Assembly: GCF_036030735.1 (NCBI RefSeq)
Contig: NZ_CP107928.1
Coordinates: 744,001 to 808,000, forward strand
Direction of reading: 5' to 3'
Source of the DNA: Streptomyces sp. NBC_00425
GTDB taxonomy: Bacteria; Actinomycetota; Actinomycetes; Streptomycetales; Streptomycetaceae
DNA length: 64,000 nucleotides
A model generated the notes under the pieces. It searched no databases and was not told where the DNA came from. It worked only from the letters and a program-made list of their open reading frames with translations. The position numbers were made by a program, and so were the translations under genes. Positions within the stretch are counted from its first letter, which is position 1; each line of letters begins with the position of its first letter. Shown piece after piece: positions 12,238 through 59,966 of this stretch.

Positions 12238-12241
<4 letters not shown>

Positions 12242-31100: not shown

Positions 31101-32530
31101 CCGCCGCGGAGGACGCCACACGCGGCCTCGACGCCACGGAGCGCCGAGTGGCGGCGCTCTGGAGCGAACTCCTGGGAGCCGACCGTATCGGGCCGGACGA
31201 CGACTTCTTCGCTCTGGGCGGCAATTCGGTCCTGGCCGTCCGACTGCTGCTCAGGATCCGCGAGGAGTGGGGGGTCCAGCTCACCCTCGGATCGGTGTTC
31301 GCCGCTCCGACGGTCGCGCGCTTGGCGGGAGTGCTCGCCGACGGCGCACCGCCGGTGACGCCCGATCCGCTGCCGGACGCCGGACTCGACCCCACGATCA
31401 CACCCACGGCCACCGTCGTACGGGTCACACGCGAGCCCGAACACCTACTGCTGACCGGGGCGACGGGCTTCCTGGGAGCCTTCCTGCTCCGCCAGCTGCT
31501 CACCGCCACCCCGGCCACCGTGCACTGCCTGGTGCGGGCGAGTGGAACCGGGTCGGGAACGAAGCGGATACGCGCGGCACTCGAGCACTACCAACTGTGG
31601 GACGACGCCTTCACCGAGCGCGTCGTGGCGGTCCCCGGCGACCTGGCTCAGCCGCAACTGGGCCTGTCCCAGGACACCTTCACCCGTCTGAGCCGTCACG
31701 TGGACGCGGTCTACCACGCCGGAGCGAGCGTCAACCTCACCCAGTCGTATCGGCAGTTGGAGAACGCGAACGTGCGCGGCACGGCCGAGGTGCTGCGCCT
31801 CGCCGCCTCGTCCCGGTCGGTGCCCCTGCACCACATTTCCACCGTGGGCGTGTACGCGGGCGACCTGGCCGGCCGCACGCACATCCGTCCGGAAGACCCC
31901 CTCCCGCCCGCGGCCACTCTGTGGAACGGCTATGCGCAGAGCAAATGGGCTGCCGAGATGTTGCTGGTCGAGGCGAGAAGACGCGGGCTCCCGGTCTCGA
32001 TCTATCGTCCGACCCGCATCGCCGGTGACACGGCCCGCGGTCTGTGCCAGCCCTCCGACTATCTCTGGCTCCTGCTGAAAGGGTGCGTCGAGGCCGAACT
32101 GGCTCCGGCCGACCCGGAGACCGACTTCGATCTCGTCCCGGTCGACGTCGTCAGCAAGGGCGTGGTCGAACTGTCACTCATGCCGGAAGCGGCCTCCGGC
32201 ACCTTCCATCTGGCCGGCGGCCGGAATCTCAAGCTGGCGACAGCGGTGGACTGGCTGTGCGGCATCGGGTACCGGATCACGGAAACCTCGTTGACCGCCT
32301 GGCGGGACACGCTGGCGCAGGACGAAACCAACGCGGCCTTCCCGCTGCTCTCCCTCATCTCACCGGAGGAATCGCTCGGGATGAGGGATGCCGCCCCCTC
32401 ATTCGACGCGGAAGGCACCTGGGACGTGCTGTCGAAGCGCGGCATCACCCTTCCGGAGATGAGCAGGGAGTATTTCGCCGCGCAGGTTCACGCGTTCGTG
32501 AAAGACGGGTTTCTCCCGCCGCCGCATTGA
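28196..32530 (+). CDS. NRPS C - A(Pro-like) - PCP - thioester reductase
   Basis: This 1444-residue terminal module has a C domain (about 20-440, VHHAVVDG), an A domain (about 470-960), a PCP (about 985-1055, LGGNSV) and a reductase (about 1080-1430). The A domain has YTSGSTGRPKG and pocket residues D-V-Q-F-I-A-Q-V-V. This is one change (His to Gln) from a known proline code, so proline or a related imino acid is predicted. The reductase has the NAD(P)-binding GATGFLG and the YAQSK catalytic pair, so the chain should leave as an aldehyde, or an alcohol after a second reduction. ATG 28196 has GGAA 7-10 bases upstream. With the free A-PCP pair the simplest product is an Xaa-prolinal, which could close to a cyclic imine. 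It might instead terminate the divergent assembly line, since no thioesterase is visible. Confidence 0.93.
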   Translation: MTTSLPGHAHPEPSTVTYPMSYEQESIWLTDAVGDSTGLYVESWVHRIRGDFSAAAAQQALTGIVRRHESLRSRLHIHGNRARQEVLPPMPVPLTRCRVSPADLQAAIREVVSRPLPLDEPPLLRACLLEVGEGDAVLAVAVHHAVVDGWALHLLDEEFSDLYGAALTERAPERPEPPLQFGPWALRQRTSAGLREVVDAYWKPTLADAPSESTFPLDHPRPEVLSHRGGLVEFALDADLTRRLRGLGRRFKATPFVVYAAAVTALLARHGQQDVVLGTPVSRRDGPELEPMIACLTDVMPLRQTVEPARSFGELVLHTKETVRSVTAHKDVPYTMLVQQTGAPRSRSRPPLFQVVLTVDDAPAPGLSLPGAQAERLYPHDGTAKFDVFFHLIPARDGWLGRLEYAEDLFSPETARQLVERLRLLLLDAADDPARAVGDLAVTTAADRSLLDTWADGPSPRGTPSPAHLAVARSARSAPDLTAVVHGRDHLTYAQLEAESDALAAHLLTVAHPGDRVGVLLERTVRLPIAVLAVLKAGCCCVPLDPAYPAERITFMLRDSRCGAVLTSSRLQHHITRLPDVPPLLLDEHRPTAPGLRPGLPDVHPEDPAYLLYTSGSTGRPKGVVMPHRSLANLVQWQSLRSARGATTAQFAPLSFDVAFQELFSTWAARGTLVLVDNEVRRDPARLLALIRTAAVERLFLPYVALQQIAEYAAADDWHGPSLREVICAGEQLFVTPAIRDFFTHRTSASLENQYGPTETHVVTAERLSGDPSAWPDRPSIGRPVPGARIRVLDDRLRLLPPGAVGEICIGGESVATGYLARPDASRQRFVQDPHDPGAGRLYRSGDLGRFRPDGTIAFAGRRDGQVKIRGHRVECGEVEAAVKSVPGVTDAVVTVDATVVHDKRLIAHYIPAGSAAPDARELRRTLRSRLPEHLVPSVCLAVPAFPLTPSGKVDRAALRPPAPRDRRSAAEDATRGLDATERRVAALWSELLGADRIGPDDDFFALGGNSVLAVRLLLRIREEWGVQLTLGSVFAAPTVARLAGVLADGAPPVTPDPLPDAGLDPTITPTATVVRVTREPEHLLLTGATGFLGAFLLRQLLTATPATVHCLVRASGTGSGTKRIRAALEHYQLWDDAFTERVVAVPGDLAQPQLGLSQDTFTRLSRHVDAVYHAGASVNLTQSYRQLENANVRGTAEVLRLAASSRSVPLHHISTVGVYAGDLAGRTHIRPEDPLPPAATLWNGYAQSKWAAEMLLVEARRRGLPVSIYRPTRIAGDTARGLCQPSDYLWLLLKGCVEAELAPADPETDFDLVPVDVVSKGVVELSLMPEAASGTFHLAGGRNLKLATAVDWLCGIGYRITETSLTAWRDTLAQDETNAAFPLLSLISPEESLGMRDAAPSFDAEGTWDVLSKRGITLPEMSREYFAAQVHAFVKDGFLPPPH

Positions 32531-34751: not shown

Positions 34752-36382
34752 CGCGCGCTCAACTCCTTTTCCGCCTGCGGCTCCTGCGGGCGGTGCAGGT
34801 CGAACGCCGGGGATTCGCTGCGGATCCGCGGCAGGGTGAGGAAGTTGTGGCGCGGCGGCGGGCAGGAGGTGGCCCACTCCAGGGAGCGGCCGTAGCCCCA
34901 CGGGTCGTCGACGCCTACCGGCTTGCCGTACTTGGCGGTCTTCCACACGTTGTAGAAGAACGGCAGCAGGGAGGATCCGAGCAGGAAGGAGAAGATCGTC
35001 GAGACCGTGTTGAGCGTGGTGAGTCCCTCGACCGCCAGATAGTCGGGGATCCGGCGCTGCATCCCGTTCACGCCCAGCCAGTGCTGGACCAGGAAGGTGC
35101 CGTGGAAGCCGATGAACAGCGTCCAGAACGTGATCTTGCCGAGCCGCTCGTCGAGCATCTTGCCCGTCATCTTCGGCCACCAGAAGTGGAAGCCGGAGAA
35201 CATCGCGAAGACGACCGTGCCGAACACGACGTAGTGGAAGTGCGCCACCACGAAGTACGAGTCGGAGACGTGGAAGTCCATCGGCGGCGAGGCCAGGATG
35301 ACGCCGGTCAGACCACCGAAGGTGAAGGTGATCAGGAAGCCCGTCGCCCACAGCATCGGCGTCTCGAAGGACAGCGAGCCCTTCCACATCGTTCCGATCC
35401 AGTTGAAGAACTTCACGCCGGTCGGGACGGCGATGAGGAACGTCATGAAGGAGAAGAACGGAAGCAGCACGCCGCCGGTGACGTACATGTGGTGCGCCCA
35501 CACCGTCACGGACAGGCCCGCGATCGAGATCGTCGCGGCGATCAGGCCCATGTAGCCGAACATCGGCTTGCGGGAGAAGACCGGGATGACCTCGGAGATG
35601 ATGCCGAAGAACGGCAGGGCGATGATGTACACCTCTGGATGGCCGAAGAACCAGAAGAGGTGCTGCCACAGCAACGCGCCGCCGTTGGCCGCGTCGAAGA
35701 CATGTGCCCCGAATTTCCGATCCGCCTCCAGCGCGAACAGCGCGGCGGCGAGGACGGGGAAGGCCAGCAGGACCAGGACGGCCGTCAGCAGCACGTTCCA
35801 CGTGAAGATCGGCATGCGGAACATCGTCATGCCCGGCGCGCGCATGCAGATGATCGTGGTGATGAAGTTGACCGCGCCGAGGATCGTGCCGAAGCCGGAG
35901 AAGGCCAGACCCATGATCCACAGGTCGGCGCCGAGGCCCGGCGAGCGGACCGCGTCCGACAGCGGGGAGTAGGCGAACCAGCCGAAGTCGGCCGCACCCT
36001 GCGGGGTGAGGAAGCCGCCCACGGCGATGGTCGAGCCGAACAGGTAGAGCCAGTAGGCGAACATGTTCAGCCGCGGGAACGCCACGTCGGGCGCGCCGAT
36101 CTGCAGCGGCATGATCCAGTTCGTGAAGCCGGCGAACAGCGGCGTCGCGAACATCAGCAGCATGATCGTGCCGTGCATCGTGAACGCCTGGTTGAACTGC
36201 TCGTTCGACATGATCTGCAGGCCCGGACGGGCGAGCTCGGCGCGCATGAGGAGCGCCATGACGCCGCCGATGCAGAAGAACGCGAACGACGTGACCAGGT
36301 ACAACGTACCGATGGTCTTGTGGTCGGTGGTCGTCAGCCACCGCACCGTCCTGATGCCCCTGAGGTCTTCGATGTGCTTCAC
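34748..36382 (-). CDS. ctaD: Cytochrome c oxidase (aa3) subunit I
   Basis: This 544-residue heme-copper oxidase subunit I reduces O2 in the membrane. It is about twelve hydrophobic segments long and keeps the metal ligands: His in [11 protein letters not shown], the CuB/tyrosine site in [13 protein letters not shown], the HH pair in WAHHMY, and the two heme histidines in [12 protein letters not shown] chose GTG 36382 (VKHIEDLRG); the N-terminus is shorter than in typical Streptomyces CtaD. The usual partners (subunits II and III, bc1) are absent nearby, so this is probably a second, orphan copy. It is divergent from a sigma factor 106 bp away. Confidence 0.95.
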
Positions 36383-36488
36383 GCCCCGCCTGTGTCCGCA
36401 TTCGGCCCGCCCGTCACACTCGAACGACGCGAGGAACCTCACGAAGGAAGGGTGTGACGATCCCGGCGGTGCCGGACACGAACCGAAC

Positions 36489-37274
36489 ATGAGCAACGAC
36501 GAGATCTTCGCCGCTGCCTACCGCGAGCACTATTGGGCCGTCAGCCGCTACATCGCGCGGCGTCTGCCCGAGCGGCCCGACGAGGTGGAGGAAGTGGTGG
36601 CGGAGGTGTTCACGGTCGCCTGGCGCCGTCGGCATGACCTGCCGGACGCGCCACTGCCCTGGTTGTACGGGGTGGCCCGTAACTGCCTGTCGAACGCGGT
36701 ACGCAGCTACGGGCGCAGGCGCCGACTGGTGGGCCGGCTGGGCAACGACGAGGCCGCGCACAGCCGACACATCGTGGACAGTCCCGACTCCGAAACGCCC
36801 GGAGCCTGGGTGCGCGAGGTCCTGAACCGTCTCTCCGGGCCTGACCAGGAGATACTGCGCCTTGCGGCGTGGGAGGAGCTGGACGCCGCGCAGATCGCGG
36901 TCGTTCTGGGCTGCGGCAGCCGCGCGGCGACGATGCGCCTGCACCGTGCCCGCCGTCGGCTGCGCGCCGAGATAGAGCGCGTCCGCCCCACAGCACTCAC
37001 GCCGGGCACACCGACCGGTCGGCGGGCGGGCGCCATGGCACCGCAGGACGAGGCGCCGACCGGGCACGGCATTCACGAGAGCCCACCCCACGGGACGCCG
37101 GCGGTCGCCGCACCGACGCCGGCCGTGGCCGCCGAAGGCGCGGACACGGCCGGTTCGTTCGGCACCGACGCCGAGTCGTCCGCCGCGGAGAACGGTCCTG
37201 GACCGCGATGGTCCCGCTCCGCGTCCAGCGCGCCCGCCGCCGTCCCGCTGTGCAAGGACCCTCGCCATGTCTGA
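36489..37274 (+). CDS. ECF-like RNA polymerase sigma factor
   Basis: This 261-residue sigma-70 family protein has a region 2 ([16 protein letters not shown], then [19 protein letters not shown]) and a region 4 HTH ([20 protein letters not shown], then [24 protein letters not shown]). Roughly 85 C-terminal residues are low-complexity, Ala/Pro/Gly-rich and probably disordered. ATG 36489 lacks a strong ribosome-binding site. The next gene starts inside its last codons, so it is translationally coupled to a membrane partner that may control it. GGAAC at 36433-36437 resembles an ECF -35 element and could indicate autoregulation, but I see no convincing -10. Confidence 0.85.
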
Positions 37275-38250
37275 CGAACTCGACCTTCTCCGCGACGCCG
37301 ATCCGGTGCCGGACCACGCTCCGCACTTCGGCGACGGTCCGCTGGACCACCGCGCCGAACGCCGGCTGGCCGCACTGCTCGGCCAGGACCGCCGTCGGCT
37401 CCGGACGCCGCGCGCCCGGTGGCTGTGGAGCCTGGCCGCCACAGCCGTCGTACCGGCCGTCGCCCTTGTCGCCGTCCTCGGCGGCCCGGGTGGGCCGCCC
37501 GCCGTCGCCGCGCCGCGCCCCCTGACCGTCCAGCCCCGTTCCGCCCCCGTCCCCCTGGGACAGATGACCGCACTGGCGGACGCCGCCGCCGCGGCCGGCT
37601 CCCCGGGACTGCGCAGGGGCACCCACGTCCAGTCGTGGAGCCTCGGCATGAGCGACGACGCGCCGCCCGTGACCCTGCCCGAGGAGCGTGTGGTGCGCTG
37701 GAACCCCGACGACAGCCGCACCGAGGTCGTCGTGGCGACCGACCCCAGCCGTCCGGGCCGTCCCGTCCTCACCGACGAGGGCGACACACCGCGCCTCGTC
37801 TCGGACGGTCACGTGCTGAGTCGGACCACCTATCCGCCGAGCTGGAGCGACGCCCCACCGGAGTCGCGCCCGCCGCACACTCCGGCCGCCTTGCTGGCCT
37901 ACCTCACCGAGATGGCCCACACGCACACGAAGGCACCCCTGACCACCGACCAACTCCTCGACTCGACACAGGAGTTGCTGGGGCACTGGACGCTCGGCGC
38001 CCGTGAGTCGGCCGCACTGGTCCGAGTCCTGACCGACGCCGGGGGACTGCGTCCGGCAGGACGGCTGACGGACCGGCTCGGACGGCCGGGTGAGGCCTAC
38101 GTGTACAACGGCACGGGCGTCCGGCGCATGCTGATCCTCGACCCTCGCACCGGCACCGTCCTCGGCCTGGAGACCACCGCAACCCGCGACGACCCCGAAT
38201 ACGGGGTCAAGGCCGGGGACGTGCTGGACTACAGCGCCTGGCTGCCCTGA
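37267..38250 (+). CDS. Membrane-anchored sigma-factor partner (CU044_5270-like)
   Basis: This 327-residue protein starts [15 protein letters not shown], the opening I associate with CU044_5270-family proteins encoded beside actinobacterial sigma factors. It has a short cytoplasmic part with two HRAERRL-like helices, one membrane helix (about 57-77, LAATAVVPAVALVAVLGG), and a large extracytoplasmic C-terminal domain. No catalytic motif is seen. The start lies within the sigma factor gene (8-bp overlap). An anti-sigma or regulatory role is inferred from context only. Confidence 0.8.
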   Translation: MSDELDLLRDADPVPDHAPHFGDGPLDHRAERRLAALLGQDRRRLRTPRARWLWSLAATAVVPAVALVAVLGGPGGPPAVAAPRPLTVQPRSAPVPLGQMTALADAAAAAGSPGLRRGTHVQSWSLGMSDDAPPVTLPEERVVRWNPDDSRTEVVVATDPSRPGRPVLTDEGDTPRLVSDGHVLSRTTYPPSWSDAPPESRPPHTPAALLAYLTEMAHTHTKAPLTTDQLLDSTQELLGHWTLGARESAALVRVLTDAGGLRPAGRLTDRLGRPGEAYVYNGTGVRRMLILDPRTGTVLGLETTATRDDPEYGVKAGDVLDYSAWLP

Positions 38251-38384: not shown

Positions 38385-39915
38385 ATGACCGTGAACGACG
38401 TAGCCGCGTCGACACTGCTGGACGTTCTGCTCGACGCGGCGCGAGAGGCCCCGGGCCAGACCGTCGTGCCCGTCCGGGGAGACGGCGGCGAGCACGCGGT
38501 CACCTTCGCTCAACTCCGGGACGACGCACTGCGCGTGGCGGCGGCCTCATCGCGGCGGGCGTGACACCGGGCACCCCACTGCCACCGGTCGCCGACCGGG
38601 GTGACACCTTCCAACCGATGTTCTGGGGCGCACTGGCGGCAGGGGCCGTGCCCGTCCCGCCCGCTGCGCAGCCGCGCCGGATCGAGCCGGTGTGGGAACT
38701 CCTCGGCAGGCCGCCCGTCATGGTGGACGAGGTGACCAGCGCCGTCGCCGTCGACACCGGCGACGGGCCGCACAGCCGACCGAACGACACGGTGCGGCTG
38801 TTGCGGCTCGACCTGAGCTGCGTCCGCCTGCTGCTCGTCGGCGCCGAGCCCATCTCGCCCCGCGTCTGGCGGGAGTTCACAGCGAGCGCGGCTCCGGCCG
38901 GGCTGGATGCCCGCGCCCCGCTCCCGGTGAACGGCCTGGCCGAGACCACTCTCGCCGTGACCGTGCCGCCGCTCGGCGAGACCGCCTCGCCGCTCGTGCT
39001 GGACCGTGCCGCGCTCAGTCGGGGCCGGGCTGTGGAGACCGATCCGGGCCCGCACGCGGTGGAGTTGACGGATCTGGGACGGCGGGTGCAGGGGTGCGAG
39101 GTCCGGATCACCGGCGAGTCCCGAGACCCGGTAGGCGAGCTGCGGGTCGGGCATGTACATGTGCGGGGACCGCAGTTGGGACGCGGGCACCGCCGGGCGC
39201 CCGAGGCGAGCGCGTCGGCGTTCGGCGACGACGGCTGGCTGCCTACCCGATCTCGGCTTCCTGCGGGACGGACGGCTGTGCGTCACCGGGCGCCACAAGG
39301 ACGTGGTGTTCGTCAACGGCCGTACGTTCCATGCGTCGGACCTGGAGTCGGCGGTCGCGGCGACGCCGGGGCTGCCGTCCGGGGCCGTGGCGGTCGTGGG
39401 GTCCACGGATCCGGACGGCGGGGGCGAACGGGTCGTCGCGTTCGTGCAACGGGCACGCCCCGAGCCCTCCGCCGCCGCACCGATGCTGCGCGCGGCAGCC
39501 GGCCGGCTGCGGGAGAACCTCGGCCACGACGACGTACGCGTACTGCCGTTGCCGCCGGGGGCGTTCCCGCGTACCACCAGCGGGAAGATGCGCCGCGGGG
39601 AGCTGCGGACGCGCTTCGGGAACGGGCGGTACGCCCCGGTCGAGGGCCGCTGGGCCGACGCGACGGCCACGACAGGGGACGGGCCGACAGGCGGTCGGCG
39701 GACGGGCCGCCGAGCGGGTCGATGGGCGGTCTCGTCGACCTCCCGCGGGCCCTCGCCCACTGGGACGCCGCCGAAGCCGCCGGGGTCCGGCCGGCCCGTC
39801 TCCACCTCCTCGACCACACCGTCCCACCGGAGGCTCTGAGCGTCCTGCCCACCACAGCGACCCCGCTGACGTCACTGTCGGACCCGCAGCGCCGCCGCCG
39901 GGCTGCTTCGGCACC
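38385..39915 (+). pseudogene. Decayed fatty-acyl-AMP ligase gene
   Basis: Three reading frames together resemble an acyl-AMP ligase. Frame one runs from ATG 38385 (GGAGA upstream) through VTFAQLRDDALRVAA and then stops at about 38561 after a one-base shift near 38536. Frame two continues GVTPGTPLPP... through LLVGAEPISPRVWREF and VNGLAETTLAV to about 39240. Frame three continues DLGFLRDGRLCVTGRHKDVV, FVNGRTFHASDLE and a TTSGKMRRGELR-like end, to about 39700; another shift leads into a short tail. The ATP-binding SSGSTG-type loop is missing, so there is also an internal deletion. At least two frameshifts plus a deletion rule out a working enzyme. Confidence 0.82.
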
Positions 39916-39954
39916 CTCGGATCCAGCTCACGCGAGCCTTCCGGCCCGCGGAGG

Positions 39955-41172
39955 TCAGGCGGTGCTGAGGGGATGGGCCGCGGTGGCCGAGCGTGGGGGC
40001 CAGGCGTGGGGGGCGAGTATGCCGAGGACGTACGCGCGGGCCACGAGGGCCGGACGGGTCGCGGCGCCCAGCAGGTGCCGCAGGCGGCTGAGGTGGTAGT
40101 CGAGCGTCTGCCGCGACAGGTTCAGGGAGGCGGCTATGTCGCTGTTGCTGCTGCCCTGCGCCAACAGCGAGAGGATGCGGATCTGGGCGGCGGTCAGCGG
40201 TGGATGCGCCTCGTGGGCGAGGCTCTGGTGGGTGATCACGGCCCAGACGTGCCGTGCCCGGCCGGCGGAATGGCCGATAGTCGTCAGATGGAGCTCCGCC
40301 CGCCGCTGCAGTCCATGCGTGTCGACGAGCACGGCAGTGGTCTCGACACGTCTGGTGCGGCGGGCTATCAGACTGTTCCAGCGGCGGTGCAACCGGTCTA
40401 GGTCAGGACCCGGTTCAGGGGCCAGCAGCGTGTGGGCGCGACGGCCCACCAGGTCGGTCAGGCCGAGATGGAAGAGTTCGGCGGCCGCCACGCTCGCCTC
40501 GATCACCCGCCCGTTCGCCGACAACAGGGCGCAGGGCAGCCCGCTGTGGTCACGCAGGGCGCTGAGGTTCTCCTCGGCCTCCTGGCGCTGCGCCGTGGCC
40601 CGCAGGTGGTCGGTGATGTCGACGTAGATGCCGGCGATGCACGAACGCGACTGCTCCCGCACCGGAAAGCGGTGGCCGACGGCGCGACCCGTGGTGCCGT
40701 CCTGCCGCAGGTAGCGGAGGGTGTGGCGGACGGGGCTGCCCCGGGTGAGTATCTGCTGGTCCAGGGCCCGGAACCGGTCGGCCTCGGCCGGAGTGTCGAA
40801 GTCCTCGATGTATCTGCCGACCAGTTGCTGCGGCACGGTGCCGTAGAGGTGTGCGTAGGCGTGGTTGGCCCACAGGTAGCGCCCGTCGCCGTCCCGGATG
40901 AAGGCGGCCGCCGGAGCGAGGTCCACGAGGTCCGCGAAGGCGGCGTGGCCGGGCGGTACCGCGGGCCCTGCTTCCCGCCGTCGGTCCGGGGCGCGCTGTG
41001 AGCCGCCCGGGTCGGCGAGACCGCCGGTGTCGTCCCACGCACCTGTCTGCAGGATCCCTTCGGCGTCCGCCTTCCCCGCCTTCTCCGCCTTCTCCGCCTT
41101 CCACACCTCGTCGACTTCCCTGCAGGGCGCCGGAAGGTTCTCGAGCAGTGTCTTGAGGCTTGGGTCGCCCAC
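39955..41172 (-). CDS. PAS-LuxR transcriptional regulator
   Basis: This regulator has one clear PAS domain (DLAPAAAFIRDGDGRYLWAN, ending FRALDQQILTRG... GIYVDITDH), a second PAS-like segment (CALLSANGRVIEASVAAAEL), and a C-terminal LuxR HTH (LTAAQIRILSLLAQGSSNSD, then IAASLNLSRQTLDYHLSRLR). An acidic/basic repeat KAEKAEKAGKADAE precedes the first PAS. I prefer GTG 41172 (405 residues) because GGAG lies 6 bp upstream; ATG 41253 is in frame but would place a palindrome inside the gene. It is divergent from the ATP-grasp operon and probably regulates it. It sits just left of the FAAL pseudogene. Confidence 0.86.
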   Translation of the reverse strand: MGDPSLKTLLENLPAPCREVDEVWKAEKAEKAGKADAEGILQTGAWDDTGGLADPGGSQRAPDRRREAGPAVPPGHAAFADLVDLAPAAAFIRDGDGRYLWANHAYAHLYGTVPQQLVGRYIEDFDTPAEADRFRALDQQILTRGSPVRHTLRYLRQDGTTGRAVGHRFPVREQSRSCIAGIYVDITDHLRATAQRQEAEENLSALRDHSGLPCALLSANGRVIEASVAAAELFHLGLTDLVGRRAHTLLAPEPGPDLDRLHRRWNSLIARRTRRVETTAVLVDTHGLQRRAELHLTTIGHSAGRARHVWAVITHQSLAHEAHPPLTAAQIRILSLLAQGSSNSDIAASLNLSRQTLDYHLSRLRHLLGAATRPALVARAYVLGILAPHAWPPRSATAAHPLSTA

Positions 41173-41208
41173 AACGGTCTCCGTCCGTATAGGACTGGCT
41201 GACGCACA

Positions 41209-41218
41209 GTCACGTGAC
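41209..41218. promoter_or_regulatory. GTCACGTGAC palindrome upstream of the PAS-LuxR gene
   Basis: A perfect 10-bp palindrome lies 37 bp upstream of the preferred GTG start and 308 bp upstream of the ATP-grasp start. It could be an operator for one or both divergent units. If the longer ATG 41253 start is used, the site is coding. Confidence 0.4.
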
Positions 41219-41343
41219 GTTGGATATCCCGCGCGATACAGCGCAAGCTCCATTCCCGGCCGAGTTGCCGGAAGTGGACGGTGGGGCTCGCCGCCCTACC
41301 GCTCGGCCGGGGATCCGGGACGAAACGCTGCGGATCACCCCGG

Positions 41344-41365
41344 GACTCAGGCATTTGCCTGAGTC
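41344..41365. promoter_or_regulatory. 22-bp palindrome between PAS-LuxR and the ATP-grasp operon
   Basis: The arms GACTCAGGCA (41344-41353) and TGCCTGAGTC (41356-41365) are perfect inverted copies around a TT centre. It lies in the 353-bp divergent region, 161 bp before the ATP-grasp start. The 2-bp centre favours protein binding over a hairpin. I see no other clear element between 41173 and 41525 besides the 41209 palindrome and a weak 14-codon ORF (41485-41529) overlapping the ATP-grasp GTG. Confidence 0.6.
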
Positions 41366-41525
41366 GTGAGCGCCCTCTGCGGCGATATGGACGGTTACAG
41401 CCTGGTCCCCTGGAGTGTGCGGGCGGACCCGCGGACGCCGTTCCCCCGCACACGTTCCCGGGCGTCACCGCACCGCCGGTGCCGATGACGGCCCTTGCCG
41501 ACCAGGTGAATGGAGACGAACTTCT

Positions 41526-42899
41526 GTGAGCACGGTGCTGTTGGTGCATGCCAAGGGTGGTCCGCCGCTCGGCCATGTCCTGTCCCGGACGGCTGCGAGG
41601 GCGGACGTGCACCTCCTGGCGCTCAGCGCTCTTCCCCCAGCCGTGGCGGGCGCCGCCGCGAGACTGTGCGCCTCGGTCACCACCCCGGACGACGCGGGTC
41701 ACTCCGACCTGGTCTCCCTGATCGTCTCGCGTGCCCGGGAGGTGGGTGCGAAAGCTGTGATCACCTTCTCCGAGTACGCGGTCGTCGCGGTCGCCGAGGC
41801 CTGCGAGAAGCTCGGTCTGCCGGGCGCGGGCGCGGCCGCCGCACTCGCGCGCGACAAGCGGCTGATGCGCAGCACCTGGCAGCGCAGCGGCCTGCCGCAG
41901 CCCGCGTTCCGCCCCGTCGCCACGGAGGCGGATCTGCAGGCGGCGGTGGACTCCCTGTCCTGTCCGCTGCTGCTCAAGGCCGCCTGGAGCGCGGGATCCA
42001 CCGCCCACCAGATCATCACCTCGCCCGTCGAGGCGTCCGCCGCATGGGCCCGCTCGCGCCGGGTCATGGCGGAGTCCGCGCAGTTGGGATACGCGGAGCT
42101 GCATGTCGCCGAGGCGGACGCCGACTTCGTGGTCGAGGAGATCGTCAGCGGTACGGTGGCGGACTGGTTCGCCGAGCCCGGCTGGGGCGACTACCTCAGC
42201 GTCGAGGGCGTCGTGGCGGACGGTGTGTTCCACCCCGTCTGCCTCAGCGGCCGGATGCCCACCGTCGAGCCCTTCACCGAGCGCGCCGGCATCACCCCCG
42301 CCCTGCTTTCGCCCGACGCGCAGGACCGCGTCGTGGACCTGGCGCGCCGCGCCGTCGACGCGCTGGGCCTGCGCGACTGCGGGACGCACACGGAGATCAA
42401 GCTCGGCCCCGACGGGGGCATGTGGCTCATCGAGACCGCTGCCCGGTTCGGCGGCGCGATGACGGTGCCGCAGATCGAGGAGGTCTTCGAACTGGACCTG
42501 GTGGGCATGCTCGTCGACCACCTGCTGGGACGCCCGGTCGCCTGGCCGGAGCAGGCCCTGACACCGGCGCAGGCGCGGGGTGCGGCGGGCTCCCTCGTCG
42601 TCCTCGCGGTCGACGGGCGCGGCGAGGCCTGGCAGGACCGCAAGGTGTGGGACTTCTCCGTGGTCGCGTCGGACGTCCCGCTGAGCCCGGACAGTGAGCT
42701 GTCGGTGGTGGCGGAGAGTTCTCTGCCCGACGGCAGTGTCGTGCCGGTCTACGACCCCGCCGCCGGGGCCAACACGATGGCGGCCCTGTGCCTGCTCTCC
42801 GCCGCCGACCCGCGGACGGTGCTGCGGGACTTCGAGACGCTGGTGGACGCGCTGCCCCGGGTGCTGCCCGCCGTGCGGTCCGAGGAGGTCCCCGCATGA
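41526..42899 (+). CDS. ATP-grasp ligase (biotin-carboxylase-like)
   Basis: This 457-residue ATP-grasp enzyme should join a carboxylate to an amine or similar nucleophile through an acyl phosphate. The N-terminal Rossmann-like part (about 1-110) includes VITFSEYAVVAVAEACEKLG. The grasp core includes ARDKRLMRS, the lysine strand CPLLLKAAWSAGS, the Glu of VVEEIVSG, and GTHTEIKLGPDGGMWLIE with TAARFGGAM for metal binding. GTG 41526 has GGAG about 10 bp upstream. The stop overlaps the next gene (ATGA). It heads an operon with a PEP-synthase-like protein and an MFS transporter, suggesting a small peptide-like product that is phosphorylated and exported. Substrates unknown. Confidence 0.9.
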   Translation: MSTVLLVHAKGGPPLGHVLSRTAARADVHLLALSALPPAVAGAAARLCASVTTPDDAGHSDLVSLIVSRAREVGAKAVITFSEYAVVAVAEACEKLGLPGAGAAAALARDKRLMRSTWQRSGLPQPAFRPVATEADLQAAVDSLSCPLLLKAAWSAGSTAHQIITSPVEASAAWARSRRVMAESAQLGYAELHVAEADADFVVEEIVSGTVADWFAEPGWGDYLSVEGVVADGVFHPVCLSGRMPTVEPFTERAGITPALLSPDAQDRVVDLARRAVDALGLRDCGTHTEIKLGPDGGMWLIETAARFGGAMTVPQIEEVFELDLVGMLVDHLLGRPVAWPEQALTPAQARGAAGSLVVLAVDGRGEAWQDRKVWDFSVVASDVPLSPDSELSVVAESSLPDGSVVPVYDPAAGANTMAALCLLSAADPRTVLRDFETLVDALPRVLPAVRSEEVPA

Positions 42900-44902
42900 G
42901 CACCCGACTGGCCACCGGCGCCGCCGAGCCCGCCACGGACCGCACGGTCGTCGGCGAGAACCTCTCTCTGCCGCTCTTCCGGACGCTCTCGGGAGTCCTG
43001 GCGGGTCACCCCTACCTCAAGGTCGTCGTCGACCGGGTGGAGAACACCTGGCATCTGCTCGACACCGGCGCGCACCCCTTCCACGTCAACTACGTCGCGA
43101 CCCGTGTGCTGGGGATGGACCTGGCCGCGCTGGACGCGCAGCTGGACGCGTTCAACGCCTCTGTCTACACCGATCCCGAGCGCCGTTTCCTGCTCGGTGT
43201 GCTGTCCCTGCACACCGAGCAGGAGGAGGGCAGGGAGCGGCCGTTCCTCGTCCTGGAGACGACCGAGGCCGACACCATGCAGGGCGAACTGCTGGCGTTC
43301 TTCTACGAGTTCGTCCGGGCCCGGGTCGACAGCAGGCTGCCGCTGCTGCTCAAGCCCGCCAACCACGGGCAGGAGGAGGGGCTGTCGGCGATCAGCGAAC
43401 AGCGTGTGCCCCGCATCCTGGGCCATGAGCTGTTCGGTTCCCGCGATCGCACGCCGCTGAACCCCGGCGAGGCCACCGGGCGGCTGCGCTTCTTCCGGAC
43501 GGCCGAGGAGTACACGGCGGCGGAAGCCGCTCTGGGCTGGGCGGACATCGTGGCGATGCCGTGCCTGCCCGACGACGTTCCGCGCGTCGCCGGCTTCGTC
43601 AACACCGCGCCGATCACGCCGCTTTCGCACACCAATGTCCTCGCCTCCGGCTGGGGCATTCCCAACGCGATCGTCCGCGACCTGGAGCAACTCGTAGACA
43701 GGGACGGCCTCGACGACGCGTGGGTGCGTTACCGGGTCGACGAGGACGACATATCCCTGCAGCGCCTCGACCACGAACCGGACCTGCGGGCGCCGGCCTG
43801 GCACCAGCAGCGCATACGCCTCGAGCCGCCGCTGCTCGAAGACGCTCCCGTACTGTCCCTGCACCGGCTGCGCAGTGCGGACCGCGACCGCTACGGCACG
43901 AAGGCGGCCAACCTCGGCGAGCTGCACCACGTCCTCGACAGCCGCACGGTGGACCTGACCTCGTTCTACGGCCGGCCCCGTCCGCCGCGCGAGGACCTCT
44001 ACGGCCACCTCGCCACCCGCCTCGGCCTCACCGCCTTCACCACCGATCAACTCCGCACCAAGGCAGCCGAGTTCGTCGCCGAGACCGTCGGCGCCCCGGA
44101 GGGCGTCGCACTCCCCTTCGCTCTCCAGCAGCGGTTCCTCGCCTCTTCCCCGGCCCTCCAGCAGGGCATCGGCAAGCTGAAGATGGCGCTCGAACTGGAC
44201 GCCACCGACGTCCTGGACTCGCTGTGCCTGCAGCTGCAGCACCTGATCCGGCACACTCCCGTCCCCGAGTCGGTCACCCGGCAGATCGACCAGGCCTTCC
44301 CCGCCGCCGCGGCCTCGCGCGGACGGCTGGTGGTGCGCTCCTCCTCCAACGCGGAGGACCTCCCCGGGTTCTCCGCGGCGGGCGTCTACGACTCCGTCAC
44401 CACCGTCCACGGCACGGGTCAACTCCTCGACGCCGTACGCCAGGTGTGGGCCTCCCTCGTGTCGCCCCGCAGCGTGCGGCTGCGCCACCAGGTCGGCATC
44501 TCCCTCGACGACACCTACATGGGAGTGATCATCCAGGAGTACGCGCCCGCCTCCCTGGGCGGCGTCCTCGTGACCTGCAACCCGACCCGCCGGGAGGACT
44601 TCCGCAACGTCTACCTCAACTGTTCCCCGGGCTCGCCCGAGCAGGTGGTCGACGGCACGGTGCTGCCGCAGCAGTACCTGTACAACACTGTGGAGGGCGG
44701 CGGCCGTACCGTCGCGCTGGGCTCGTGGGACCAGGGACTGTCCGCCGCCGTCCGCGCCCGGCTCGCCGACCTGTCCCTGACCGGACGGCTCCTGCAGTCC
44801 CACTTCAGCGGAACCGACGTGGACAAGCCCCTGGACATCGAGTGGCTGATGACCGAGCAGGGCGATTTCCGCCTGGTCCAGATCCGACCCTACGCGCTGT
44901 GA
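42896..44902 (+). CDS. PEP-synthase-like phosphotransferase with inverted domain order
   Basis: This 668-residue protein has the two catalytic parts of PEP synthase/PPDK enzymes in reversed order. A swivelling phosphohistidine domain comes first (about 170-280, TPLSHTNVLASGWGIPNAIV, with the SH histidine). The ATP-binding PPDK-N-type domain follows (about 330-668: GTKAANLGEL, VVRSSSNAEDLPGFSAAGVY, CNPTRREDF and LDIEWLMTEQGDFRLVQIRP). Canonical PEP synthases put ATP-binding first. The first about 170 residues are unrecognised and may be an adaptor or substrate domain. No PEP/pyruvate C-terminal barrel is seen, so the acceptor is probably another small molecule. ATG 42896 overlaps the ATP-grasp stop and the stop overlaps the MFS start, so all three are co-translated. 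Confidence 0.88.
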   Translation: MSTRLATGAAEPATDRTVVGENLSLPLFRTLSGVLAGHPYLKVVVDRVENTWHLLDTGAHPFHVNYVATRVLGMDLAALDAQLDAFNASVYTDPERRFLLGVLSLHTEQEEGRERPFLVLETTEADTMQGELLAFFYEFVRARVDSRLPLLLKPANHGQEEGLSAISEQRVPRILGHELFGSRDRTPLNPGEATGRLRFFRTAEEYTAAEAALGWADIVAMPCLPDDVPRVAGFVNTAPITPLSHTNVLASGWGIPNAIVRDLEQLVDRDGLDDAWVRYRVDEDDISLQRLDHEPDLRAPAWHQQRIRLEPPLLEDAPVLSLHRLRSADRDRYGTKAANLGELHHVLDSRTVDLTSFYGRPRPPREDLYGHLATRLGLTAFTTDQLRTKAAEFVAETVGAPEGVALPFALQQRFLASSPALQQGIGKLKMALELDATDVLDSLCLQLQHLIRHTPVPESVTRQIDQAFPAAAASRGRLVVRSSSNAEDLPGFSAAGVYDSVTTVHGTGQLLDAVRQVWASLVSPRSVRLRHQVGISLDDTYMGVIIQEYAPASLGGVLVTCNPTRREDFRNVYLNCSPGSPEQVVDGTVLPQQYLYNTVEGGGRTVALGSWDQGLSAAVRARLADLSLTGRLLQSHFSGTDVDKPLDIEWLMTEQGDFRLVQIRPYAL

Positions 44903-46329
44903 GGGCGCGCCCCGGCACCGGAGCGACCACGGGCCTGACCGACACCGCCCGCCTGATCATCCGGCTCAACTACGGCTTCCAGCTGCTGTTCAACCTGCTG
45001 TGGTGGATGCCGGTGTTCTACGCCTACCAGAAGGCGGCCGGCCTCTCGGACGGGCAGATCTTCGGCATCCAGAGCATCTACTACGTGGCCTTCTGCCTGC
45101 TGGAGATCCCGACCGGCCTGATCGCCGACCGGATCGGCACCCGCAACTGCCTGCGCGCCGGCGCGGTGGTGATGACGGCCGCGAACCTGGCCCCGGTGGT
45201 CAGCGCCTCCTACACGGGATTCCTGATCCACTTCCTGGCCATCGCCGCCGGCCGGTCGCTCACCTCGGGCGCGGCGAGCGCCTACCTGTACGACGGGCTG
45301 CGGGCGGAACGGTGCGACGAGCACTACCTGCGAGCGGAGGGTACCGCGCGGGCACTGGGGCTGGCGGCGAAGGTGGTGTGCTGGCCGCTGGTAGGGCCGC
45401 TGATGGCGCTCTCGCACCCGGCCCCGTACGTGCTCAGCGCGGCGAGTGCGGCAGGCTCCCTCGTCTGCGCGGTGCTGCTGCCCCGACTCGCGGGAGCGGA
45501 AGCCGGAGCGGACGAGGGCCGCAATGACGGCGGGCGCCGGGGCGGCGCCTTCCTGCGGGACGCGGGGACCGCACTGCGCTGCGTCGCCGCCTCGCCGTGG
45601 CTGGCCCTGGTGATGGTGCAGGGCGTGGCGGTCTTCACGCTGTCACGCATCTGCCAGGTCAACCTCTTCCAGCCGATCCTGCTGGCCCACGGCATCGGCG
45701 AGGCCTCGCACGGCGGGGTGCTGGCCGCGATGACCGTGGCGGAGGCGGTGGCGTCCGCGCGGCCCCAATGGCTCAGCCGCAGACTGCCGCCGGTCGCCTG
45801 GGTGTCCGTCCTCAGCCTCGCGCTGGCCGGCACCCTGGCTGCCATGACCCTCGGCGGGCCGTGGACCGTCGTCGCGCTGCTCTGTCTGTTCGCCGCGGCC
45901 ACCGGGTTCGCCTTCCCGGTCCAGCGCAAACTGGTCAACGACGCGATCCCCGCGCACGCACCGCGGGCCACCCTGCTGTCGGTGGAGAGCATCGTGGACC
46001 GCGCGGTGTGCGCCCTGGCCGCGATCGCCGCGGGCGCGTACCTGTCGGCCGGGCATCTGGACGCCCTGCTGTGGCACAGCGCGCTGGCCACGGCGGTTCT
46101 GCTCGGGGTCTTCCAACTGCTGTTGCGCAGCGGGGTGGTCGCCCGCGGGGGCGGGGTTCGGGACGGGGATCGGGCGGAGCCGGCGCAAGGGAGCGACCGC
46201 ACAGGAGCCAACAGCACCGCATCGGCGGAGGCGGGCGACGGTGCAACCGCCCCGGCGGACACGGGGGACGCCGGCCGCAAGGAGGCCCTCCAAGGGGACC
46301 AGGCCTCGCGAGGCCCACGAACGCCCTGA
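44899..46329 (+). CDS. MFS exporter of the ATP-grasp operon
   Basis: This 476-residue MFS protein has about twelve hydrophobic segments, with the MFS-type loop DRIGTRNCLRAG after helix 2. The last about 75 residues are hydrophilic, Gly/Ala/Glu-rich and probably cytoplasmic. GTG 44899 overlaps the stop of the phosphotransferase gene (GTGA). As third gene of a coupled operon with two small-molecule-modifying enzymes, it is most likely the product exporter. The substrate cannot be read from sequence. Confidence 0.9.
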   Translation: MRARPGTGATTGLTDTARLIIRLNYGFQLLFNLLWWMPVFYAYQKAAGLSDGQIFGIQSIYYVAFCLLEIPTGLIADRIGTRNCLRAGAVVMTAANLAPVVSASYTGFLIHFLAIAAGRSLTSGAASAYLYDGLRAERCDEHYLRAEGTARALGLAAKVVCWPLVGPLMALSHPAPYVLSAASAAGSLVCAVLLPRLAGAEAGADEGRNDGGRRGGAFLRDAGTALRCVAASPWLALVMVQGVAVFTLSRICQVNLFQPILLAHGIGEASHGGVLAAMTVAEAVASARPQWLSRRLPPVAWVSVLSLALAGTLAAMTLGGPWTVVALLCLFAAATGFAFPVQRKLVNDAIPAHAPRATLLSVESIVDRAVCALAAIAAGAYLSAGHLDALLWHSALATAVLLGVFQLLLRSGVVARGGGVRDGDRAEPAQGSDRTGANSTASAEAGDGATAPADTGDAGRKEALQGDQASRGPRTP

Positions 46330-46518: not shown

Positions 46519-47157
46519 TCAAGCGAGGCGACGGCCCAGGAGTTCGATCAGACCCGCCGGCAGGAACGCGGGCCGGTACGGCAGACCGACCTGGTACGAC
46601 ACGAAGCCCAGCGAGGAGGCGACGGACACCTCCTGAGCCGTCTCCGCCTGGTAGACGACCCGGCAGCCGGCCGAGTCCTCCTTGGCGCGCCGCCACAGGA
46701 CCGGGGACGGCTTCCGTTCCGCCTCGGTGCGCGGCGTACGGATCCGGTCGCCGAAGTCTGCCCAGGCGAAGGCCGCCGGACCCCGCCATGTCGCGTCGAC
46801 CTCCGTCCGGAGGCGGGCGGCGCGCTCGCCGTCTGTCGTACCCCAGGAGGGCGGGACATTGGTGATCAGGCCTACCCGGACGTGATGTTCCCGCAGGGTC
46901 CGCAGGTACGAGGCCGCCCCGGGCAGGTAGGTGGTGCTGCCGTCGTCGGCGGTGTGCACGAGGGTCTCCCCCAGGTCGAAGTACACGACGGGACACGCCC
47001 GTTCGCCGTGCGGGGGCAGGGTGGCGAACGCGCTCTGGCCCTTCCCGGCCTCCTCGGAGGCGGCCACGGCCGCCGGCGTGCACAGCACCGTCGACACCAG
47101 GGCCGCGCCCAGCGCCAGTGCCAGACGGGGCGAACTCCTGTAAGCAGATCCGTTCAT
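46519..47157 (-). CDS. Secreted HAD-like protein
   Basis: This 212-residue protein has an N-terminal signal peptide (basic YRSSPR, then LALALGAALVSTVLCTPAAVAA). The mature part has a HAD core: motif I VVYFDLGETLV, motif II LITN, and an LPYR-type end. The aspartate two residues after the nucleophile is replaced by Gly (DLGET), so the acid/base of phosphatases is missing, as in some non-phosphatase HADs. ATG 47157 has AAGGGG upstream. A palindrome at 47176 sits just upstream, so it is probably regulated. Secreted HADs are uncommon; substrate unknown. Confidence 0.8.
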   Translation of the reverse strand: MNGSAYRSSPRLALALGAALVSTVLCTPAAVAASEEAGKGQSAFATLPPHGERACPVVYFDLGETLVHTADDGSTTYLPGAASYLRTLREHHVRVGLITNVPPSWGTTDGERAARLRTEVDATWRGPAAFAWADFGDRIRTPRTEAERKPSPVLWRRAKEDSAGCRVVYQAETAQEVSVASSLGFVSYQVGLPYRPAFLPAGLIELLGRRLA

Positions 47158-47175
47158 GAGCACCGCCACCCCTTC

Positions 47176-47195
47176 AGTGTCATAGACATGACACT
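47176..47195. promoter_or_regulatory. 20-bp palindrome upstream of the HAD-like gene
   Basis: The arms AGTGTCAT (47176-47183) and ATGACACT (47188-47195) are perfect inverted copies with an AGAC centre, 19 bp before ATG 47157. Position fits a repressor operator overlapping the translation start region. No regulator gene for it is evident nearby. Confidence 0.55.
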
Positions 47196-47230
47196 TTACC
47201 GCTCCCGTGGTCCATGGGTGGGCCTGGCGT

Positions 47231-47246
47231 TGAGTACGCGTACTCA
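47231..47246. promoter_or_regulatory. 16-bp palindrome TGAGTACGCGTACTCA
   Basis: This perfect 16-bp palindrome resembles TetR-type operators. It lies 74 bp upstream of the HAD-like gene, 46 bp from centre to centre with the 47176 element. No TetR gene is seen in the window. Confidence 0.6.
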
Positions 47247-47343
47247 TGTGACCGGTACCGTCGCACCGGCCCCACCGCCCCAGGCCGAGACCGCCGGCCG
47301 ACTTCCCGTAACCAACACGCCCCCTCCGGGCGTCACTTCAGCA

Positions 47344-58574: not shown

Positions 58575-59933
58575 ATGCGTAGAAAAGGCCTGCGAGCCGC
58601 TGTGGCCACCGCCTGCTTGGCGGTGGCCACTCTGTTGGCGCCGACGAGCACTGCTGCGGCAGCCCCCGGCGACAATCCCGGTGCCCTGACCCCGATAACC
58701 TCCTCCTCGGAGCTGGCGAAGCTCCGACTGGTCGAGCACCGCGTTCCGACTGCCTCTCTCGACAACCTGGCGAACGAGATGGGCACGTCCCGCGGGGTCG
58801 ACCAAGTACTCGCCAGTGCCAACCACACGATGCGCAACGGGGCGAGCTGCTCCGCCACGGAGACCGCCGCGCTGCCGGTGAAGCCGACCGCTCAGGTCGC
58901 CTACTGCTGGGACACCGGTGACGCGGTGACCCAGGACTGGCTGCCGCAGTCCGTGACTTCTTCAGGAGACGCGGACAACGACGGCGTGTGGGGCAACAAC
59001 AAGGTCATCCTGTCCGGTTGGGGGCAGAACGGCACCACCACCACCGACCACATGGGCCGTATCGCCTTCATCGACGCCAACAACCCCAGTGCCTTCAAAT
59101 ACCGCTGGGTACTGCCGGTCGTCCCGCTCAACGGCGGCACCGACTACCGCGCCCTCAAGTCCCACATGGGCGGCATGGTCTGGTACCAGGACAAGCTGAT
59201 CGTCACGTCGTGGGAGAAGGACGACGACCAGAACGTGATGTACGTCTTCGACATGAAGCGCATCCTCCAGGCGACCGTCAACAGCTCGACAGTCGGCAAG
59301 GTGAGCGGCGGATGGTCGGCCGGAGGCTACCAGTACGTGATGCCCGCCGTCGGCTCGTACAGCCTCGCCGGCGGGAGCTGCACCTCCGCCGACGACGACT
59401 CCCTGCCGTGCTTCGGATCCATCTCGCTGGACCGCAGCAGCGTGCCGGACAGTCTGGTCGCCACCGAGTGGTTCTCCTCCGGCAGCTCGCAGCCCGCCCG
59501 TATCTGGCGGTACAACTTCGGTTCCGACCCCGGCTATCTCGCCACGGACAGCAGCAGCCGTGTGAACGCCACGCAGGCGTACGAGACGAAAGCGGTCGGA
59601 CTCCAGGGAGTGCTGTCACACAGCGCCACCAGCGGCGGCACACCGAACTTCTACCTCGACGACGCGCGCGGTGGTGTCGGCCAGCACGGCATCCTGTGGC
59701 GGCAGAACGCCAGCGGAGCCAAGGCGGCCGCCAACTGCGGGCAGGACATCACGTATGCCTGCTGGGGCCAGCACACCGAGAGCATGTCCTACTGGTGGAG
59801 TACGGGTCAGGTATGGACACTCACCGAATGGGCGGCAGACAGCTCGGGACACTGGTCCGGCACCGATTCGGCGATTCCACAGCGCGTACTGTTCTCCGTG
59901 CCACTCTCTTCGATAGACGCATCCCTCAGCTGA
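58575..59933 (+). CDS. Secreted protein, possible beta-propeller
   Basis: This 452-residue protein has a signal peptide (MRRKGLRAAVATACLAVATL, cleavage near TAAAAPG). The mature part has scattered repeats with Asp/Gly turns and Trp (DHMGRIAFIDANNPSAFKYR, KSHMGGMVWYQDKLIVTSWE, QNVMYVFDMKRILQATV), which look beta-propeller-like. No catalytic motif recognised. ATG 58575 has AAGGA about 8 bp upstream. It is followed by a hairpin at 59946. Role unknown, presumably extracellular. Confidence 0.82.
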   Translation: MRRKGLRAAVATACLAVATLLAPTSTAAAAPGDNPGALTPITSSSELAKLRLVEHRVPTASLDNLANEMGTSRGVDQVLASANHTMRNGASCSATETAALPVKPTAQVAYCWDTGDAVTQDWLPQSVTSSGDADNDGVWGNNKVILSGWGQNGTTTTDHMGRIAFIDANNPSAFKYRWVLPVVPLNGGTDYRALKSHMGGMVWYQDKLIVTSWEKDDDQNVMYVFDMKRILQATVNSSTVGKVSGGWSAGGYQYVMPAVGSYSLAGGSCTSADDDSLPCFGSISLDRSSVPDSLVATEWFSSGSSQPARIWRYNFGSDPGYLATDSSSRVNATQAYETKAVGLQGVLSHSATSGGTPNFYLDDARGGVGQHGILWRQNASGAKAAANCGQDITYACWGQHTESMSYWWSTGQVWTLTEWAADSSGHWSGTDSAIPQRVLFSVPLSSIDASLS

Positions 59934-59945
59934 CAGTGAATGCAC

Positions 59946-59966
59946 CCCGTGCACCCGGTGCACGGG
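59946..59966 (+). terminator. Hairpin after the secreted propeller-like gene
   Basis: CCCGTGCACC (59946-59955) and GGTGCACGGG (59957-59966) are perfect inverted arms around one base, 13 bp after the stop. As a hairpin the loop would open to 3 bases. Most likely a terminator. Confidence 0.55.

What the first reader, a model, noticed from the sequence alone, without database searches (positions are those of the whole stretch)
41173..46329. ATP-grasp / inverted PEP-synthase-like kinase / MFS operon: possible new small-molecule system
Three overlapping genes encode a carboxylate ligase, a phosphotransferase with its swivelling His domain ahead of the ATP domain and no PEP barrel, and an exporter. 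A divergent PAS-LuxR regulator and a 22-bp palindrome complete a self-contained unit. The simplest reading is ligation of two small molecules, phosphorylation, export. Phosphoramidon/talopeptin biosynthesis, in which the kinase TalE forms an N-P bond on a dipeptide, is the nearest functional precedent I recall; I cannot tell whether these proteins are related.
Basis: partly seen in the sequence, partly recalled or inferred. Interest (0 to 1): 0.85.

Follow-up and report, generated by a model that had tools for sequence, protein, structure and literature searches.

The report
Minimal phospho-dipeptide gene cassette in Streptomyces
Three overlapping Streptomyces genes look like a very small pathway that joins two amino acids, adds phosphate and exports the product; they are relatives of the genes that make the protease inhibitor phosphoramidon, and a secreted phosphatase-like gene often goes with them.

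Summary
A BacD-type amino acid ligase (A), a PEP-synthase-like kinase with its His domain ahead of its ATP domain (B) and an MFS carrier (C) overlap by 4 nt each, with a divergent PAS-LuxR gene (R) and a 22-bp palindrome. All 19 of 150 same-genus genomes that hold B have A, B and C together. In Kitasatospora-type loci the same kinase and ligase families (44-48% and 44-45% identical) stand beside a glycosyltransferase, in one locus 97% identical to TalC of S. mozunensis. I read the window as a sugar-less tal-like variant, probably making an N-phosphoryl dipeptide (compare FMPI, phospho-Phe-Arg). Two additions: the palindrome is conserved upstream of A in all 39 loci tested (two are one genome); and a secreted HAD-like protein (H, 46519-47247, minus) occurs in 32 genomes of two samples, 27 of which have B, but 21 of 48 same-genus B genomes lack it. 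Product, N-P bond and H's role are inferred. Kinase-MFS pairs without a ligase in other phyla are the main reservation. The key tal paper was not readable.

The parts
39955..41253 (-). R: PAS-LuxR regulator, divergent from the operon (432 aa)
   Evidence: PAS and GerE domains; R beside the operon in 19 of 19 first-set loci with A at 67% identity or more and within the fetched stretch in 20 of 20 later loci, in one of them (L146) downstream
41344..41365 (.). 22-bp palindrome, proposed operator of R
41526..42899 (+). A: BacD-type ATP-grasp L-amino acid (dipeptide) ligase; Ala311 at the BacD Trp332 position
   Evidence: NCBIfam NF053745 1.7e-57, below its cut-off; PDB BacD 1.6e-52
42896..44902 (+). 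B: kinase, 668 aa, TalE-type by homology to the kinase beside TalC
42938..43441 (+). B residues 15-182: N-terminal domain, proposed phospho-acceptor site; no Pfam family, no significant PDB match
43439..43771 (+). B residues 182-292: swivelling His domain, His245 in TPLSH
   Evidence: His245 invariant in 42 of 42 and 51 of 51 aligned rows
43838..44899 (+). B residues 315-668: ATP-grasp domain
44899..46329 (+). C: MFS carrier, presumed exporter
   Evidence: MFS_1 2.2e-13; together with A and B in 19 of 19 genomes
46519..47247 (-). H: HAD-like protein with a signal-peptide-like start (probable start Met31), convergent with C

Best explanation
A minimal biosynthetic cassette for an exported N-phosphoryl dipeptide, a sugar-less sibling of the phosphoramidon/talopeptin (tal) pathway. 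(1) A joins two L-amino acids with ATP (inferred from BacD homology). (2) B takes a phosphate from ATP onto His245, the His domain swings to the N-terminal domain, and the phosphate goes to the dipeptide's amino group as an N-P bond (domains shown; His relay from established enzymes; acceptor inferred from tal). (3) C exports the product (inferred). (4) R controls the operon through the palindrome (inferred; the site's conservation is shown). (5) Where present, secreted H acts on the exported product or its breakdown product (inferred from co-occurrence). The likeliest product class is an FMPI-type phospho-dipeptide metalloprotease inhibitor.
For: A, B and C together in 19 of 19 B-bearing genomes of 150 and in 20 of 20 further loci. 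Kitasatospora-type loci carry the same kinase and ligase families followed by an EryCIII-like glycosyltransferase; P0264, named TalC [Streptomyces mozunensis], is 97.4% identical over 379 aa to the one in Kitasatospora sp. MAA19. B there is 44.4% identical to the window's over residues 2-666, A 44.4% over 1-443. In the kinase tree the B-A-T rows form one supported branch among ligase-bearing relatives. In 62 of 62 distinct ligases the BacD Glu311, Glu324 and Arg328 equivalents are kept, while the Trp332 position is Ala in 19 of 19 clade I, Val in 17 of 17 clade II and Leu in 11 of 11 tal-type rows, so the dipeptide probably differs by clade. FMPI, phospho-Phe-Arg from S. rishiriensis, is a known sugar-less product (PMC6429109, part 1 of 4 of section 5 read).
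Against: In 44 of 118 B loci no ligase of this family was found in the flank held (one of them, L064, has a weak 52-bit match; several flanks are short): the kinase-MFS pair stands alone, e.g. in Bdellovibrionota and Elusimicrobiota, so a dipeptide from A is not the only acceptor of the wider family. TalE itself was not retrieved by name, so the link runs through the neighbour TalC. The tal paper was not held. The BacD His276 position is not His in any of the 62 ligases. MFS direction cannot be told. Tal-type genomes have no H (11 of 11), and 21 of 48 same-genus B genomes lack it. Unlinked H genes lack the palindrome.
Confidence: 0.6

Rival explanations
1. Masking: the dipeptide itself is the active, self-toxic compound; B phosphorylates it inside as protection, C exports the inert form, and secreted H removes the phosphate outside.
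For: H has a signal-peptide-like start and keeps the HAD nucleophile Asp90, Lys178, Glu201 and Glu205 in 10 of 10 aligned rows. In two overlapping genome samples 27 of 32 H genomes have B, in some of them unlinked, and H lies beside the kinase operon in four phyla. Streptomycin 6-phosphate is a recalled precedent.
Against: In tal-type products the phosphoramidate is the inhibitor's own group (recalled). H is missing from 21 of 48 same-genus B genomes and from 18 of 18 B genomes of other genera, also when every candidate is scored. The second Asp of the usual HAD DxD motif is Gly.
Confidence: 0.15
2. B is an O-kinase of a small molecule, like rifampin phosphotransferase, and A attaches an amino acid to something other than an amino acid.
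For: Closest solved folds are rifampin phosphotransferase and HpeI; HpeHI phosphorylates phenols (abstract and passages of PMC12167813). A does not reach the BacD cut-off (194.9 against 850 bits), and the BacD His276 is not kept.
Against: Rifampin phosphotransferase has another domain order, and no PDB match covers the N-terminal domain of B; homology to the kinase beside TalC spans that domain too.
Confidence: 0.1
3. Uptake-and-phosphorylation module: C imports a compound and B traps it; the ligase joined later.
For: B-C pairs without ligase (44 of 118 loci), in Amycolatopsis and Lentzea downstream of Entner-Doudoroff genes.
Against: In the 39 clade I loci examined the ligase always stands in front of B in the same direction, and it overlaps B in the window; the tal branch makes an exported inhibitor (recalled).
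Confidence: 0.08
4. B is a housekeeping PEP synthase and the neighbourhood is chance.
For: Annotated 'phosphoenolpyruvate synthase' or PEP/pyruvate-binding in public records.
Against: No PEP barrel, best PEP-synthase model 101 bits against a cut-off of 598; present in 19 of 150 genomes only; fixed neighbours.
Confidence: 0.01

Closest known systems
tal cluster (phosphoramidon/talopeptin; TalE kinase, TalC glycosyltransferase), Streptomyces mozunensis
   Same: Homologous kinase and ligase families, adjacent to each other; compact cluster
   Different: Window has no TalC-type glycosyltransferase and has MFS, PAS-LuxR and HAD-like genes; 44-48% (kinase) and 44-45% (ligase) identity to the loci beside TalC orthologues; another ligase pocket residue (Ala instead of Leu)
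FMPI (N-phospho-Phe-Arg), Streptomyces rishiriensis
   Same: The product class expected of ligase plus N-kinase without sugar transfer
   Different: Genes unknown to me; the aimed paper search listed only the review that names the compound; the link is a hypothesis
BacD (YwfE) alanine-anticapsin ligase
   Same: ATP-grasp ligase, 1.6e-52; Glu311, Glu324, Arg328 kept
   Different: Trp332 position is Ala, His276 position is Gly; far below the BacD equivalog cut-off
Rifampin phosphotransferase and HpeHI small-molecule dikinases
   Same: ATP-grasp and swivel His domains, small-molecule acceptor
   Different: Domain order permuted against rifampin phosphotransferase; no match of the N-terminal domain to a solved structure
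Glucan water dikinases
   Same: His domain ahead of a C-terminal ATP domain (recalled), so this order is not unique
   Different: Starch as substrate
PimM-type PAS-LuxR regulators
   Same: PAS plus LuxR domains; palindromic site with an A/T centre
   Different: 432 aa against 148-231 aa in the four table rows that I saw; site longer than CTVGGGAWWTCCCBAG

Membership tests
tal-type phosphoramidate cluster | kinase homologous over its length to the kinase beside TalC | tested here: met
   44-48% to 11 of 11 fetched B-A-T loci by tblastn, 44.4% over residues 2-666 to L043
tal-type phosphoramidate cluster | direct similarity to TalE itself | not tested
   TalE not retrieved by name; paper not held
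tal-type phosphoramidate cluster | adjacent BacD-type ligase | tested here: met
tal-type phosphoramidate cluster | adjacent TalC-type glycosyltransferase | tested here: not met
   profile of four TalC-like proteins: no match at 1e-5 in the whole window or in the other 38 clade I loci (0 of 39)
tal-type phosphoramidate cluster | product with N-P bond | not testable with these tools
   needs the enzyme assay
BacD L-amino acid ligases | ATP-grasp ligase with Glu311, Glu324, Arg328 kept | tested here: met
   62 of 62 rows; numbering assumes a 2-residue offset of the PDB chain; that these three matter is recalled
BacD L-amino acid ligases | Trp332 limiting the N-terminal residue | tested here: not met
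   Ala311 in the window, Ala in 19 of 19 clade I rows
BacD L-amino acid ligases | His276 | tested here: not met
   Gly255 in the window; Gly, Ser, Thr or Asn in 62 of 62 rows
PEP synthase / PPDK | ATP-grasp domain and swivel His domain | tested here: met
PEP synthase / PPDK | PEP/pyruvate barrel | tested here: not met
   only PPDK_N in Pfam; the remaining domain has 168 residues with mixed strands and helices
Rifampin phosphotransferase | ATP domain first, His domain last | tested here: not met
   order N-domain - His - ATP
PimM-type PAS-LuxR | PAS plus LuxR HTH | tested here: met
PimM-type PAS-LuxR | site CTVGGGAWWTCCCBAG | tested here: inconclusive
   CTCAGGCATTTGCCTGAG has a similar outline but is 18 bp
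HAD phosphatases (H) | nucleophile Asp, Lys and acidic metal residues | tested here: met
   Asp90, Lys178, Glu201, Glu205 in 10 of 10 rows; but the Pfam match of the window protein is only 0.013, below cut-off
HAD phosphatases (H) | second Asp of motif I | tested here: not met
   Gly92 in 10 of 10 rows

The most novel reading that the evidence does not exclude
About one Streptomyces genome in eight carries a hidden four-to-five-gene pathway for unglycosylated N-phosphoryl dipeptides, whose exported product is in many strains cut or activated outside the cell by a dedicated secreted HAD enzyme acting on a P-N bond; the kinase's N-terminal domain is an undescribed acceptor domain shared with ligase-free kinase-MFS pairs in several phyla.
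Probability: 0.22. Interest if true: 0.82.

Novelty: new variant of a known kind. Interest (0 to 1): 0.62.

Why it matters
Phosphoramidate natural products are rare and useful as metalloprotease inhibitors. If right, this places a very small orphan pathway in roughly one in eight Streptomyces species, offers candidate genes for FMPI-type compounds known since the 1980s, gives enzymes that may make N-P bonds on peptides in two steps, and points to a secreted partner enzyme whose substrate can be tested at once.

Tried and rejected
Housekeeping PEP synthase: rejected. The window genome has two other weak matches to B's ATP domain (31% and 30%), not followed.

Class-level sample: 7 of 394 genomes, all same genus; searches show relatives in many other genera, so its loose first look missed them and I use it only as a lower bound.

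S. rishiriensis and S. tanashiensis: not among the names shown (best 120 of each) or 46 (best 80 of 205); this tests nothing.

H as a constant part of the unit: not borne out. So H is present in 27 of 48 same-genus B genomes and 0 of 18 of other genera. I lowered the masking rival from 0.20 to 0.15 and the novel case from 0.25 to 0.22 for that reason. The reverse still holds: of the five H genomes without B, a second search finds no B in four and only a 30% match to the ATP domain in G410.

Unlinked H genes carrying the operator: not found in 11 genomes with B (best 7-9 mismatches in the 5 kb held), so H is not shown to be under R.

Glucan water dikinase: the passages read (PMC12892837) give its catalytic His but not the domain order, which is recalled.

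Other ligase contexts (L016-L018) are different systems and were left.
Full report
What is there. The window (G000, one 9.8-Mb contig; operon at about 785.5-790.3 kb) holds A 41526-42899, B 42896-44902 and C 44899-46329 on the plus strand with 4-nt overlaps, R 39955-41253 on the minus strand, and between R and A a perfect 22-bp palindrome at 41344-41365. Next to C, convergent, is H 46519-47247, which it did not include.

A. The ligase matches BacD best: NCBIfam 1.7e-57 (194.9 bits, cut-off 850) and PDB BacD chains 1.6e-52. Among 62 distinct ligases from 76 loci the equivalents of BacD Glu311, Glu324 and Arg328 are invariant, while His276 is replaced in all 62. The Trp332 position, which a review names as a key pocket residue of BacD (PMC6920838, passages), is Ala in 19 of 19 rows of the window's clade (I), Val in 17 of 17 of clade II, Leu in 11 of 11 tal-type rows, Val (8) or Leu (4) in 12 other rows with A and C, and Ala (1) or Leu (2) in the three ligases without the kinase. 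PDB chain 3wo1 has Ala there where 3vmm has Trp. I infer room for a larger N-terminal residue, and different dipeptides by clade.

B. Pfam sees only PPDK_N at 396-666. The AlphaFold2 model (51 sequences, pLDDT 86.5) places a swivel His domain at 182-292 and the ATP-grasp domain at 315-668, each matching rifampin phosphotransferase but in the opposite order. His245 in TPLSH is invariant in 42 of 42 and 51 of 51 rows. Residues 15-182 form a confident separate domain (pLDDT 92.2, 45 sequences) without Pfam match at E 10 or significant PDB match. It has invariant polar residues, so I take it as the acceptor site.

Co-occurrence. In 150 same-genus genomes, B is found in 19, C in 19, A in 21. In all 19 the three are together, A-B-C in 18 and B-C-A in G090; C of G033 has two stop codons. 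A-like genes without B occur in G068 and G077, and a second one in G048. In 345 genomes of the family, 54 have B, in 4 of 17 genera; of these 54 loci I fetched or already held 47 and did not look at 7 (G458, G721, G723, G725, G796, G798, G810).

The tal link. Scans and fetched loci show several arrangements (118 B loci, some of them one genome under two ids): A, B, C and R (34), B-A-T (21), A and C but no R found (16), A, C and T (3), and B-C with no ligase of this family in the flank held (44, one with a weak 52-bit match). T is an EryCIII-like glycosyltransferase. A search with the T of Solihabitans fulvus listed P0264, 'TalC [Streptomyces mozunensis]'. It is 97.4% identical to the T of Kitasatospora sp. 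MAA19 and 76-89% to the Ts of the other fetched B-A-T loci that are held whole. So these loci are tal clusters or very near, and their kinase is the natural TalE candidate. That TalE is the N-P-forming kinase and TalC the glycosyltransferase is recalled from the abstract of Baulig et al. 2019; I saw only its title in two reference lists, and the paper is not held. The window's B and A are 44.4% identical to the MAA19-type genes over nearly their whole length. No TalC-like match lies anywhere in the window or in 38 other clade I loci. The kinase tree (66 rows, quick method, SH-aLRT only) puts B-A-T on one branch (100) within a larger branch (99) of ligase-bearing loci, and clades I and II together (100).

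Operator. The 20-base core is found upstream of A in 19 of 19 clade I loci at 0-4 mismatches, 6-8 elsewhere in the same loci. In 20 loci fetched afterwards it is found at 1-5 mismatches against 6-8 elsewhere, in 20 of 20 (one, L140, is the same genome as L132). R lies within the stretch held in all 39; in L146 it is downstream. Upstream of A in clade II and tal loci the best match has 7 or more mismatches. It resembles the outline of the PimM site (PMC9774167, passages) but is longer.

H. A profile from H and two relatives found members beside the operon in 19 of 118 B loci: 11 of 19 clade I, two B-C-A loci (Kribbella sandramycini, Streptomyces sp. SID13031), Myxococcota (L082), Elusimicrobiota (L104, L109, L110) and Bdellovibrionota (L115, L116); then in 6 of 20 new clade I loci. 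In the 150 genomes H occurs in 17, 16 of which have B; 10 are beside the operon, 6 elsewhere (hypergeometric 1.2e-17, ignoring kinship of genomes). In the family sample, which overlaps the first, 17 of 22 H genomes have B (2.7e-11). Counting each genome once, 27 of 32 H genomes have B, but only 27 of 48 same-genus B genomes have H, and 0 of 18 B genomes of other genera, which a second search with every candidate scored did not change. Of the five H genomes without B, G756 has R next to H and no A, B or C match in the 5 kb held, as if the operon had been lost. H has a signal-peptide-like start and keeps the HAD nucleophile and three other motif residues but not the second Asp. I conclude that H depends on the operon more than the operon on H, and probably works on the same compound outside the cell; turnover and unmasking are both open.

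Mechanism and doubt. The best reading is: dipeptide, N-phosphorylation by a His relay, export, in many strains extracellular processing. Shown: genes, domains, co-occurrence, homology to TalC-linked genes, operator conservation. Inferred: every reaction. Against it stands the B-C pair without ligase in other phyla: the family's acceptor is wider than A's product, or another ligase is encoded elsewhere. FMPI, phospho-Phe-Arg (PMC6429109, part 1 of 4 of section 5 read), is the best known candidate for the product class; whether S. rishiriensis carries the operon was not testable here. Novelty in print: ten paper searches listed no paper that I recognised as describing this operon, but the one paper most likely to mention it was not readable.

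Noticed in passing
window 46519-47247: HAD-like gene with a signal-peptide-like start (minus strand); 27 of 32 genomes that hold it also hold the kinase, sometimes unlinked; taken up in the report.
   Followed up: yes
L166 (G756:C70), about 2209-4142: H and R side by side without A, B or C in the 5 kb held, and no B in the genome: looks like loss of the operon from between them.
   Followed up: partly
window 38561-40099: Piece of an AMP-binding enzyme (PF00501, 3.4e-07, just at the cut-off), apparently a degraded gene upstream of R.
   Followed up: no
window 26625-28196: Free-standing NRPS-type adenylation protein (TIGR01733, 2.1e-92, just under cut-off) beside very long ORFs at 6590-12493, 17541-25733 and 28193-32530: perhaps an NRPS cluster.
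   Followed up: no
window 36063-38250: Sigma-70-like gene overlapping a CU044_5270 family gene; perhaps a sigma factor with its regulator.
   Followed up: no
window 58575-61565: Radical SAM protein (59940-61565) next to a 452-aa protein without Pfam match.
   Followed up: no
L074, L078 and other Amycolatopsis/Lentzea loci: Kinase-MFS pair directly downstream of Entner-Doudoroff dehydratase and aldolase genes, without the ligase.
   Followed up: partly
L082, L094, L097, L100, L102, L104, L106, L109-L111, L113-L116, L127: Kinase-MFS pairs in Bdellovibrionota, Elusimicrobiota, Myxococcota and Wallbacteria, 46-52% identical to the query; function unknown, some with H beside them.
   Followed up: partly
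L017, L018: Relatives of ligase A in another cassette: methyltransferase, asparagine-synthase-like protein and MFS carrier in L017, homologous neighbours in L018.
   Followed up: no
L016: Relative of ligase A amid a PLP enzyme, an O-methyltransferase, a TauD-type dioxygenase, an MFS carrier and further ATP-grasp-like genes: another orphan cluster.
   Followed up: no
B residues 15-182 (window 42938-43441): Confidently modelled domain without Pfam family or significant PDB match.
   Followed up: partly
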